DNA from: an uncultured Porphyromonadaceae bacterium
Lineage (GTDB): Bacteria > Bacteroidota > Bacteroidia > Bacteroidales > Muribaculaceae
Length of the DNA stretch: 64,000 nt
Reading direction: 5' to 3'
NCBI GenBank assembly: GCA_945873625.1
Contig: CAMCDS010000003.1
Location: 62,001-126,000 of the forward strand
Shown here: in pieces, positions 45,011-57,592 of the stretch
How the letters are laid out: each line of letters starts with the position of its first letter
How positions within the stretch are numbered: the stretch's first letter is position 1
Notes under the pieces: generated by a model
Database searches by the model: none
Told to the model about the DNA's origin: nothing
The model's input: only the letters and a program-made list of their open reading frames with translations
Translations under genes and position numbers: made by a program

Positions 45011-45047
45011 TGTCTCGTTAAGTCCGATTTAGTTCGGTAGTACATAG

Positions 45048-45449
45048 TGGAGATGGAGGGAATTGAACCCTCGTCCAAACGCGGAATCAACGGGCTTTCT
45101 ACATGCTTAGTCATCGAGTTGGTTTTCGTGTTGCGACAGGCTCGAGACAACCAATCGCAACCTTATCCTCTAAGTTTCAGAGACGCCGCGAGGCGTGACG
45201 TCTCCAATTTCCGAATTTCTCTGCACCACCTTATCCAAACGTCTCGGAACAGGGCAATGGGGTGATGTCTCGTCTGCGCCACTGTGGCGCGGATTAAGCG
45301 ATTCTACTATACTTCAAATCAAGCAGCGAGAGCGTAGTTGTTGTTTTCGCCAATTATAGTTCGACGACATTGTGATTATAGAGCTTTATCGCCGAAGCTC
45401 TGCATGCTTACCGGTCGCTTCTACACGCTGTCAAAGCCAAGTCATCCCC
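45048..45449 (-). ncRNA. ssrA: tmRNA (ssrA), tag GENNNYALAA
   Basis: Rescues stalled ribosomes by trans-translation. The 5' end GGGGATGACTTGG pairs with CATCTCC at the 3' end to form the tRNA-like acceptor, and the T arm GAGGGTTCAATTCCCTC is intact. The tag frame at 45319-45351 reads GGC GAA AAC AAC AAC TAC GCT CTC GCT GCT TGA, giving GENNNYALAA, one Asn longer than the GENNYALAA-type tags that I recall from relatives. CCA is not encoded (CTA follows the discriminator A), so it must be added. Pseudoknot arms are visible, for example GAGACGTC/GGCGTCTC. Confidence 0.95.
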
Positions 45450-45494: not shown

Positions 45495-45502
45495 CAAAAT
45501 TA
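45495..45502 (-). promoter_or_regulatory. ssrA promoter core
   Basis: Reads TAATTTTG on the minus strand, 45 nt upstream of the mature 5' end. Confidence 0.6.
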
Positions 45503-54652: not shown

Positions 54653-55615
54653 TTATTCTATTTTCTTTTTGAGCTTTCCCCCTCCGGGATTCCACTTGTC
54701 GCTGAGCACGAGGCCTCCGATGATGAGCACGCATCCGATGTAGCCCACAAGGTAGATTACCTCTCCGAGCACGATATAGGCGGCTATCATGGTAACCAGC
54801 GGCTGCAGGTAGAGATAGTTGTTGGTGAGCACGGGGCCGAGCACGTTCATCACCTCGTTCCAGATGAGGTAAGCGCAGCATGAGCACATGATAACGAGGA
54901 AGAGGAAGTTGAGCATTAATTTAGGCTGCGAGATGTCGAAGAGGAGGTGGAGGTGGTAGGGTTCAGACTGGAACAAGAGAAGCGGCAGAGCTGTTATCAC
55001 GCCGTAGAAGAAGAGCTTACGGGTGATGAAGAGGGAAGAGTAGTGAGGTATGAGGCTCTTCACCACGATTGTGTATATTGCCCAGGAGAGCGATGCCGAC
55101 AGAGCGAGGAGGTCGCCTTTGGGCTTGATTACGAATCCCTCTCCGTGGCTGAATATGATGCAAACCACACCGGCGAAGGCAATCAGCGAGCCGATGGCTT
55201 CTCCCACCTTGATGCGGGTGTGGAAAATGATTGCCACGAGAATTGTGGTGAAAATCGGCGAGACGGAAGCGAGGAGCGAGACGTTGCCGGCGGTGGTATT
55301 GTTGAGCGCGAAGTTTTCAGTGATGAAGTAGAGAGAACCGGAGCAGACGCCACAGATGAGGAAGTTGAGCTCGTCGCGCCAGTTGTTAGACCGTATGTGC
55401 TTGAATGTCAGTAAAAGCAGCAGAATGTAAGCCGCAGCAAAGCGATAGACGAACATTTCTACCGGGGTGAAGCCTCCGCCACCGCTTTCTGTCGGGAGCA
55501 TGAGCACTTTGGTGCAGAGGAACGATGTGCCCCATGCGCATGCGGCGAGCAGGGCGCCGATGTTGGCTATTACCTTGACGTACTTTGAATTACGCATTGA
55601 TATCTGAGCGTTCAT
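54653..55615 (-). CDS. DMT-superfamily (EamA) transporter
   Basis: 320-aa inner-membrane protein with ten predicted helices in two EamA repeats (ACAWGTSFLCTKV in the first, LSASLSWAIYTIVVKSLIPH in the second), probably a metabolite exporter. A basic tail (GGGKLKKKIE) follows the last helix. The start MNAQISMRNSKY is chosen because upstream in-frame ATGs lie on the far side of, or within, the promoter region (TACTTTTG at 55663-55670). It is independent of the ncRNA upstream, which has its own terminator. Confidence 0.93.
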   Translation of the reverse strand: MNAQISMRNSKYVKVIANIGALLAACAWGTSFLCTKVLMLPTESGGGGFTPVEMFVYRFAAAYILLLLLTFKHIRSNNWRDELNFLICGVCSGSLYFITENFALNNTTAGNVSLLASVSPIFTTILVAIIFHTRIKVGEAIGSLIAFAGVVCIIFSHGEGFVIKPKGDLLALSASLSWAIYTIVVKSLIPHYSSLFITRKLFFYGVITALPLLLFQSEPYHLHLLFDISQPKLMLNFLFLVIMCSCCAYLIWNEVMNVLGPVLTNNYLYLQPLVTMIAAYIVLGEVIYLVGYIGCVLIIGGLVLSDKWNPGGGKLKKKIE

Positions 55616-55662: not shown

Positions 55663-55670
55663 CAAAAGTA
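55663..55670 (-). promoter_or_regulatory. Promoter core for the DMT transporter
   Basis: Reads TACTTTTG on the minus strand, 47 nt upstream of the ATG at 55615 and downstream of the ncRNA terminator. Confidence 0.55.
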
Positions 55671-55724: not shown

Positions 55725-55759
55725 AAAAAAAGAGTCAGGCGTCCGGTAGCGGACGCCTG
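55725..55759 (-). terminator. Terminator of the unidentified RNA
   Basis: Perfect 10-bp stem CAGGCGTCCG/CGGACGCCTG with a 4-nt loop (55736-55759), followed on the minus strand by ACTC and a T7 run. Confidence 0.92.
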
Positions 55760-56066
55760 AGAGGATGTGCAATCGTTTCCATCCTAATAACACTAATCGT
55801 TTTCCGGCACTTCGGCACGGATGATAGTTCCATGATTCACATCACAGACCACAAGAGCATAACAGCAGACGCAGCGCTTACGGATTGCACATCACCGGAT
55901 TCGCACCGGCAGGATCAGGACTTGCCGCGTATGCATTTCATCATTCACTATTATTATTCACTTGTATCCTTTGTCGGTTCCGAGCCTTGCAGGCCGCACG
56001 TGCAGGAGAGGAGGCAGGCTGCTTTAAGACCCGGCAAGCGTCTCCCTTTCGGGGCATACGCTTTCG
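55725..56066 (-). ncRNA. Unidentified structured RNA of about 340 nt
   Basis: A free-standing transcription unit without an ORF. It has a promoter core TAATTTTG (56072-56079), strong internal pairing and a near-ideal terminator. Stems include AAGCGT/ACGCTT capped by CCC-GAAA-GGG at the 5' end, CCGG-TGCGAAT-CCGG near the middle, and an 11-bp perfect pair GATGTGCAATC/GATTGCACATC (55764-55774 with 55883-55893) closing a 3' domain. I find no RNase P, SRP, tmRNA or clear cobalamin-riboswitch signature. A 6S-type RNA or lineage-specific RNA are options. Confidence 0.6.
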
Positions 56067-56071
56067 GACTG

Positions 56072-56079
56072 CAAAATTA
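56072..56079 (-). promoter_or_regulatory. Promoter core of the unidentified RNA
   Basis: Reads TAATTTTG on the minus strand. Predicted initiation is near 56066. It lies downstream of the LuxR-type gene's stop, so the RNA is separate from that operon. Confidence 0.6.
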
Positions 56080-56123
56080 CGCATTTATGGCCGATAAGTC
56101 GGAAAGCCTGATGTTAAAAAACA

Positions 56124-56723
56124 TTAAATCTTTATTTCAGCGAGGTCTACGAGGCGGTTGACAATGGCATAGATCGTGAGTCCGGTGGCGCTGTGGATCT
56201 CGAGTTTGCGCGCTATGTTGCGCCTGTGGGTCATCACGGTATGGACCGAAATAAAGAGGCGGTCGGCTATCTCCTTGTTGGTCAATCCCTTCACCACGAG
56301 TGTGATAATCTCCTTCTCGCGCTGGCTCAGGGGCTCGCGGTCGGTGTCGGTCTCAGAGCCTGAATCTACGAGGGCGCGAATCTTGGCGGCTATTGTCGGG
56401 AGGTCGTCGACTACCGACACGGCGTCGTCGTAGAGACGGAGCGTCTGTTGCGGCAGCTGGCTGACGGCTACGGCCACTATGCGGATGTCGTAGCCGGCGT
56501 CGTGGCGGAGCTGCTGAGGGTCGAAAGCCCCTCCGAACGTGGGGTTGACCACCACGATGTCGATATGCGCGCTGCTAAGGCAGTCGAGCAGTTCGGGGTA
56601 AGTATGCGCCTCGATGGCGCGGGCCTGCACCCCGGGGAGGCGGCAGAGGCAGAAGCTGAGCCCGGCCGAGATGACGGGCGAGGTCTCGGCCACCACTATG
56701 TGGATTTTACCGTCGCGGCTCAT
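56124..56723 (-). CDS. LuxR-family response regulator with a degenerate receiver domain
   Basis: 199 aa. The N-terminal receiver-like domain (KIHIVVAETSPVISAGLSFC) has Asn60 in VVVNPTFGG where the phosphorylated Asp should be, so conventional phosphorylation is unlikely. The C-terminal NarL/FixJ-type helix-turn-helix is normal (LSQREKEIITLVVKGLTNKE then IADRLFISVHTVMTHRRNIA). ATG overlaps the hemerythrin stop by 4 nt, indicating translational coupling. The pair probably senses redox or NO conditions and controls transcription; targets are unknown. Confidence 0.9.
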   Translation of the reverse strand: MSRDGKIHIVVAETSPVISAGLSFCLCRLPGVQARAIEAHTYPELLDCLSSAHIDIVVVNPTFGGAFDPQQLRHDAGYDIRIVAVAVSQLPQQTLRLYDDAVSVVDDLPTIAAKIRALVDSGSETDTDREPLSQREKEIITLVVKGLTNKEIADRLFISVHTVMTHRRNIARKLEIHSATGLTIYAIVNRLVDLAEIKI

Positions 56724-57427
56724 TGCGGAGTCTCTCTTGAGCCCGTCTCCTTCTCGAGCCTTACTATGGCCGGCACCAGAAGCTCGTCTTCCACCATGCA
56801 GTGGCTGCGCAGCTCCTCCTCGCAGCGGTAGATGTCGTAGAGGGCGGCGTTGAGCAGGTTGGAGTCGGCGTCGCCGGGTCCGTATTTGATGATGATGCTT
56901 TTCAGCTCGTGGAGTCGCGACGACACCTCTTCGTGGTGGTCGCTGTAGGTGCCGATGCTGAAGCCCGGCTTCGCTCCCGGCGAAGGAAGCGACTCGATGT
57001 AGGCGAACACGGTGCGGTCTTCATACTCCATGTGGGTGCGCACTTCGGCCACATATTCGTCGAAGAACTTGAGTATCAGTATCGATACGCTGTCGGTGCG
57101 CATGGGAATGCCGTCGAGCAGCCTGCGCCTGATGGAAGGCAGCAGCCAGTCGAGGAAGTAGGCATGGCTTTGTTTGAGATAATGGAGCAGAGAGCTTACC
57201 GACACGTGGGCGGCCGCGTCGGCGTGGGCGTAGCCGTCGACCACGAAGTTGACTACGGAGAGGAACGTGTCGCAGTCCACCCCGGAGGCGGAGCACACTT
57301 CTCTCACGGTCTGGTCGCCGAAGCCCACGCTGATGCCGAACCGGCTCATCACCTGGATGAGGCGGTAGTCGTCGGCTATGAGCCGGGCCATCTTCTCGTC
57401 GGGGGAATAGTGGTATTTCGATTCCAT
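56720..57427 (-). CDS. Hemerythrin-domain protein (YtfE/ScdA-like)
   Basis: 235-aa di-iron protein related to the RIC family that repairs Fe-S clusters or senses O2/NO. An N-terminal DUF542-like segment (VGFGDQTVREVCSASGVDCD) precedes a hemerythrin four-helix bundle with candidate ligands in SHAYFLDWLLP, HMEYEDRTVF, DHHEEV and EELRSHCMVEDELL. ATG 57427 (MESKYHYSP) is preferred over 57436. It is co-translated with the LuxR-type regulator and has a leader of about 160 nt containing a CCCCGGAGC/GCTCCGGGG hairpin (57493-57521). Confidence 0.9.
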   Translation of the reverse strand: MESKYHYSPDEKMARLIADDYRLIQVMSRFGISVGFGDQTVREVCSASGVDCDTFLSVVNFVVDGYAHADAAAHVSVSSLLHYLKQSHAYFLDWLLPSIRRRLLDGIPMRTDSVSILILKFFDEYVAEVRTHMEYEDRTVFAYIESLPSPGAKPGFSIGTYSDHHEEVSSRLHELKSIIIKYGPGDADSNLLNAALYDIYRCEEELRSHCMVEDELLVPAIVRLEKETGSRETPQ

Positions 57428-57592
57428 GGATATCATTTAGCTTTTGCGGAAGGGGTACGAAGGGCAAGGTCGGTGTCAGAGAGGCAGTTTGCCCCGGAGC
57501 GACGCTCACGCGGCTCCGGGGAAATGCCTAACTTAAATCTAATTAACTATGCGGCCTTCATGCCGAATTCTGCTTAGTGGTTTTTCACATTG

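What the first reader, a model, noticed from the sequence alone, without database searches (positions are those of the whole stretch)
55725..56079. Unidentified ncRNA of about 340 nt with its own promoter and terminator
Promoter core, dense pairing including an 11-bp long-range stem (55764-55774 with 55883-55893) and a textbook terminator define a free-standing RNA gene. It lacks the hallmark sequences of RNase P RNA, SRP RNA and tmRNA, and I could not confirm a riboswitch. The terminator strength suggests high expression, as in 6S-type housekeeping RNAs.
Basis: partly seen in the sequence, partly recalled or inferred. Interest (0 to 1): 0.6.

Follow-up and report, generated by a model that had tools for sequence, protein, structure and literature searches.

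The report
Rare structured non-coding RNA gene
A gut bacterium carries a gene for a folded, non-protein-coding RNA of about 340 letters that matches no known RNA family and was found in only one other species, where its shape has been preserved despite mutations; what it does is not known, but it is probably a regulator.

Summary
No Rfam family matches.

The decisive new evidence is a homologue in another species of the same genus (G033), at the same place, just after a LuxR-type regulator gene. The 3' two thirds align far above chance (z = 22.8 against shuffles). All six substitutions in the 11-bp stem keep it paired, including two compensatory double changes. Promoter and terminator recur. 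In G033 the next gene (mutL) points the opposite way, so the RNA is not a leader or riboswitch of a downstream gene.

It is not a housekeeping RNA. RNase P RNA, tmRNA and the Bacteroidales-1 (6S-type) RNA are found elsewhere in this genome. A covariance model finds this RNA in 2 of 111 species of the genus and in no other Bacteroidota genome sampled. It is best read as a young, lineage-restricted, structured regulatory RNA, probably acting in trans. Target and protein partner are unknown; a two-genome target search gave nothing above control.

The parts
56072..56079 (-). Promoter -7 element TAATTTTG (Bacteroidota consensus TAnnTTTG)
   Evidence: Sequence; motif list; the same octamer, TAATTTTG, precedes the homologue in G033; consensus from PMC7366714
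55725..56070 (-). RNA gene, about 340-346 nt; 5' end inferred from promoter position (about 56066-56070), 3' end in the T-run
   Evidence: Promoter plus terminator; homologue with the same layout
55966..56070 (-). 5' domain: variable in sequence; folds into an extended imperfect hairpin in both species
   Evidence: Folds; not alignable between the two species
55938..55965 (-). A-rich conserved linker (ACAAGTGAATAATAATAGTGAATGATG)
   Evidence: Alignment with G033
55907..55927 (-). Hairpin PA: CGGCA / TGCCG, loop with GTCCTGAT; CGGTA / TACCG in G033 (one compensatory change)
   Evidence: Comparison; read by eye
55894..55910 (-). Hairpin PB: GCCGG-TGCGAAT-CCGGT, 7-nt loop resembling a tRNA T-loop; shares CCG with PA, so the two exclude each other; the 4-bp equivalent is ACCG-TGAAAGT-CGGT in G033
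   Evidence: Comparison; fold
55883..55893 (-). 5' strand of the 11-bp long-range stem P2 (GAUGUGCAAUC)
   Evidence: Exact complement; 11/11 pairs kept in G033 with 2 double and 2 single-sided changes
55832..55845 (-). Hairpin capped by a GUGA tetraloop (GUGAU-GUGA-AUCAU), nearly invariant
55776..55793 (-). Conserved segment GTGTTATTAGGATGGAAA, 17 of 18 identical in G033; candidate interaction site
55764..55774 (-). 3' strand of stem P2 (GAUUGCACAUC)
55725..55760 (-). Intrinsic terminator: 11-bp stem, CUAC loop, U7 after CUC
   Evidence: terminator of a different sequence at the equivalent place in G033
56124..56723 (-). Upstream neighbour: LuxR-type regulator; the RNA follows its orthologue in G033 too
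   Evidence: Pfam GerE; synteny
54653..55615 (-). Downstream neighbour: EamA-family transporter with its own TAnnTTTG at 55670-55663; not the neighbour in G033
   Evidence: Pfam EamA; motif

Best explanation
This is a free-standing gene for a structured non-coding RNA of about 340 nt, read leftwards (minus strand) from a sigma-ABfr-type promoter to an intrinsic terminator. It has a fast-evolving 5' hairpin domain and a conserved core of about 200 nt, folded around an 11-bp long-range stem that closes just before the terminator. The core holds a GUGA-capped hairpin and an 18-nt conserved segment. Shown computationally: the gene layout, the homologue, the preserved stem, independence from the downstream gene, and restriction to one small lineage. 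Inferred: that it is transcribed, and that it acts in trans as a regulatory RNA, through base-pairing of the conserved unpaired segments with mRNAs or by binding a protein. The target is not identified.
For: Homologue in G033 with promoter, conserved blocks, stem and terminator; similarity z = 22.8 over 1,000 dinucleotide shuffles; 16 of 16 pairs of the two named helices kept in both, 2 with changes on both sides, whereas slid partners pair at 13-52%; same genomic place after LuxR in both; convergent mutL downstream in G033 excludes a leader role; no Rfam match; RNase P RNA, tmRNA and Bacteroidales-1 present elsewhere in this genome; found in 2 of 111 species of the genus and in none of the further family, order and phylum samples; no matches on phages or plasmids beyond short chance stretches.
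Against: There are only two members, so covariation is thin: 128 of 500 column shuffles do as well, as is unavoidable with two sequences. P2 is favoured in this species (pair probability about 0.8) but not in the minimum-energy fold of G033 (about 0.1; 2.8 kcal/mol worse), so P2 could be one of two alternative states. A comparative target search over 720 orthologue pairs found nothing above shuffled controls. There are no expression data. No clear -33 TTTG is evident here.
Confidence: 0.55

Rival explanations
1. It is the processed 3' untranslated region of the hemerythrin-LuxR operon. The strong hairpin is that operon's terminator, and the RNA is released from, or also made from, the operon mRNA, coupling its level to that operon.
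For: In both species the RNA lies directly downstream of LuxR on the same strand, and no terminator on the RNA strand was found between LuxR and the RNA. 3'UTR-derived sRNAs are a known class (own knowledge).
Against: Both species have the TAATTTTG promoter core between LuxR and the RNA, at different distances from LuxR (about 45 and 230 nt). Other species keep the operon without the RNA.
Confidence: 0.15
2. It is a protein-binding or scaffold RNA (6S-like in function, or an RNP component with a tertiary fold) rather than an antisense regulator.
For: Sequence is conserved on both strands of stems (the GUGA hairpin is nearly invariant), and there is an extended closed architecture with a GNRA loop; pure antisense sRNAs are usually constrained mainly in the seed (own knowledge). 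No target was found.
Against: No partner protein is known. The genome already has a 6S-type RNA. The distribution is too narrow for a core RNP.
Confidence: 0.2
3. It is a riboswitch or attenuator leader of the EamA transporter gene: the mutually exclusive hairpins PA and PB, and P2, control the terminator.
For: In the window the RNA, its terminator and EamA follow each other on one strand. Hairpins PA and PB exclude each other, and P2 has a competitor in G033.
Against: In G033 the next gene is mutL on the opposite strand. EamA has its own TAnnTTTG core at 55670. No riboswitch family matches.
Confidence: 0.05
4. It is not an RNA gene but intergenic DNA with a strong terminator and chance pairing.
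For: Folding energy here is only mildly better than shuffles (z = -1.5), and the gene was found in two species only.
Against: Core conserved at z = 22.8 between species whose flanking LuxR proteins are 69% identical; stem changes are pair-preserving; promoter and terminator recur.
Confidence: 0.05

Closest known systems
Intergenic trans-encoded sRNAs of Bacteroides (catalogue in PMC7366714)
   Same: Intergenic, own TAnnTTTG promoter and intrinsic terminator, same phylum
   Different: Not compared with that catalogue by sequence here; no Rfam member matches; restricted to one small lineage
6S RNA / Bacteroidales-1 (RF01693)
   Same: Free-standing structured RNA in Bacteroidales
   Different: A separate copy of RF01693 is in this genome; length about 340 nt rather than about 180; no matching sequence; not universal in the genus
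RNase P RNA class A (RF00010) and tmRNA (RF00023)
   Same: Similar length, complex fold, long-range stem
   Different: Both occur elsewhere in this genome; no family match here
Riboswitch leaders with intrinsic terminator
   Same: Mutually exclusive hairpins upstream of a terminator and, in this species, a transporter gene
   Different: No downstream gene on the same strand in G033; no family match

Membership tests
6S RNA | Match to the Bacteroidales 6S-type model (RF01693) or other 6S models | tested here: not met
   No Rfam hit at this locus; RF01693 matches G000:C26:13019-13213 instead
6S RNA | Long hairpin with a large central bubble over its whole length | tested here: not met
   Predicted folds are multi-domain in both species
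6S RNA | Near-universal presence in related species | tested here: not met
   2 of 111 species of the genus
6S RNA | Binds RNA polymerase and templates pRNA synthesis | not testable with these tools
   Needs experiment
RNase P RNA | RF00010 match; one gene per genome | tested here: not met
   The gene is at G000:C2:93383-93755
tmRNA | tRNA-like ends and tag reading frame | tested here: not met
   tmRNA is at window 45047-45449; none at this locus
SRP RNA | RF00169 match or domain IV motif | tested here: inconclusive
   No Rfam hit at this locus; RF00169 is found nowhere in this genome nor in the Bacteroides control, so the model may miss this group; the narrow distribution argues against SRP
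Riboswitch / attenuator leader | Co-oriented downstream gene in all members | tested here: not met
   Convergent mutL in G033
Trans-encoded sRNA | Own promoter and terminator in an intergenic region | tested here: met
   (sequence evidence only; transcription not shown)
Trans-encoded sRNA | Conserved base-pairing with target mRNAs | tested here: inconclusive
   720 orthologue pairs, nothing above control; only part of both genomes was available

The most novel reading that the evidence does not exclude
A new class of complex structured RNA with a tertiary fold (GUGA tetraloop, mutually exclusive hairpins, long-range stem next to the terminator) that binds a protein or ligand, or switches between two states, arose recently and is confined to one small lineage of Bacteroidales gut bacteria.
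Probability: 0.22. Interest if true: 0.6.

Novelty: new member of a known kind. Interest (0 to 1): 0.38.

Why it matters
If transcribed, it is a new RNA family in uncultured or little-studied Bacteroidales gut bacteria. It would show that a large, well-structured RNA can be restricted to a couple of species, placed by single-origin inheritance next to a conserved operon. Such recently arisen RNAs are useful for asking how structured RNAs originate. It has no immediate practical consequence.

Tried and rejected
Rfam on the window, and at permissive E-values on both homologues: nothing meaningful. DNA search in 150 relatives: only short matches, one of which (G033) led to the homologue. The 18-nt conserved segment with up to 2 mismatches in 397 genomes: only the two RNAs match exactly, the rest looks like chance. 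Two-block pattern in 84,980 species genomes and in viral contigs: only G033 is real; 14 other genome hits and 2 viral hits read by eye are unrelated. Viral contig L041: chance. Weak model hits in G045, G042 and G197: inside coding sequence, chance. Phages and plasmids: short chance stretches only. Diversity-generating template or repeated copy: no second copy in this genome by similarity search. Short open frames on the RNA strand, by eye: none conserved in G033. Target prediction with four conserved segments: not above shuffled controls. The antisense ORF 55832-56161 (+): no Pfam match.

Full report
What was checked. Read on the minus strand, the stretch runs from a TAATTTTG element at 56079-56072 to a terminator whose stem is 55760-55735 and whose U-run ends at 55725. 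TAnnTTTG is the published -7 consensus of the Bacteroidota primary sigma factor (PMC7366714). It occurs 59 times in the window on both strands, including just upstream of the EamA gene (55670) and about 50 nt upstream of tmRNA (45502). The 11-bp stem is at exactly the coordinates given. The neighbours on the same strand are a LuxR-type regulator (56124-56723, ending about 45 nt before the promoter core) and an EamA transporter (54653-55615).

Known families. Rfam at gathering thresholds finds only tmRNA and tRNA-His in the window. Permissive searches of this locus and of the homologue give only eukaryotic snoRNA-type and other low-scoring chance matches. RNase P RNA is at G000:C2:93383-93755. 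Bacteroidales-1 is at G000:C26:13019-13213 with 128 bits. That Bacteroidales-1 is the 6S RNA of this group is my recollection of Wehner et al. 2014, which is not in the library; PMC7366714 cites that paper for Bacteroidetes 6S RNA. SRP RNA was not found by RF00169 in this genome or in the Bacteroides control, so that exclusion rests on the locus having no hit and on the narrow distribution.

The homologue. A DNA search of 150 relatives gave one 26-nt match in G033 lying about 440 nt downstream of the orthologous LuxR gene. Reading that locus shows a TAATTTTG promoter core, the blocks AGTCCTAATTCTACCG, CTCTTGTAGTCTATGATGTGAATCAT and GTGTTATCAGGATGGAAA, the partner strand GCACATC, and a terminator. 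The 3' part (from about nt 100 on) aligns with z = 22.8 (soft scoring) or 10.5 (BLAST-like scoring) against 1,000 dinucleotide shuffles. The 5' third does not align, but forms an extended hairpin in both. The G033 record is CANEHE010000003.1, an uncultured Porphyromonadaceae MAG (contig length 138161 in both lists).

Structure. In stem P2 the two species differ at six positions: two pairs change on both sides (A-U to G-C) and two on one side (A-U to G-U, C-G to U-G). All 11 pairs remain. Sliding the partner by 1-3 columns drops pairing to 13-52%. With two sequences the shuffle control has no power, and I do not claim statistical covariation. P2 is probable in this species (0.5-0.8) but not in the minimum-energy ensemble of G033 (0.1), where it costs 2.8 kcal/mol. 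Hairpins PA and PB share nucleotides in both species, so they cannot form together. Whether this is a switch is open.

Context and history. In G033 the order is pyrBI-like, flavin reductase, hemerythrin, LuxR, RNA, then mutL on the opposite strand (gene names for pyrBI and mutL read from the translations, not from a family search). In the window it is the same up to the RNA, then EamA. The RNA therefore cannot be a leader of a conserved downstream gene. Many other genus members have hemerythrin-LuxR without the RNA. A tree of LuxR plus hemerythrin places G000 and G033 together (support 0.71) within a clade with G029 (0.996). G029 is complete and lacks the RNA. A single gain after the G029 split, or a loss in G029, explains the pattern.

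Distribution. Model R1 (two sequences, 208 positions, 16 pairs) finds 2 of 111 species of the genus. It finds no further member among 397 genomes drawn from the family, 393 from the order and 395 from the phylum; these samples overlap. The weak extra hits lie in coding sequence. A model from two sequences misses distant relatives, so 'absent' means 'not recognisable'.

Function. The layout says an independently made RNA, and conservation of stems and loops says a fold under selection. I commit to a trans-acting regulatory RNA as most likely, with antisense pairing or protein binding not separable. A target search with four conserved segments in 720 orthologue start regions (about 1.6 Mb of this genome and 1.2 Mb of G033) gave no excess over shuffled segments.

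Verdict. The 6S/housekeeping reading is not supported. It is a new, narrowly distributed member of the general kind 'intergenic structured sRNA'. Function remains to be found.

Noticed in passing
whole genome G000: The small bacterial SRP RNA model RF00169 finds nothing in this genome or in the Bacteroides control genome, although it hits 9 of 14 control genomes above cut-off. Bacteroidales SRP RNA is either divergent or of another type.
   Followed up: partly
window 56124-57436 (-): A hemerythrin-domain gene and a LuxR-type regulator gene form a conserved pair across the genus, usually downstream of a flavin-reductase gene; possibly a redox or nitric-oxide response unit.
   Followed up: partly
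window 45047-45449 (-): tmRNA with tag peptide GENNNYALAA; a TAnnTTTG element lies about 50 nt upstream at 45502.
   Followed up: no
L094 1501-1695 (G000:C26:13019-13213): Bacteroidales-1 RNA, 128 bits, folding into a long hairpin closed by an 11-bp stem.
   Followed up: partly
L142 about 7700 (G000:C3) and its G033 orthologue in L158: A gene pair has 9-nt complementarity between its start region and the A-rich linker of the RNA in both species; AT-rich and not above controls.
   Followed up: no
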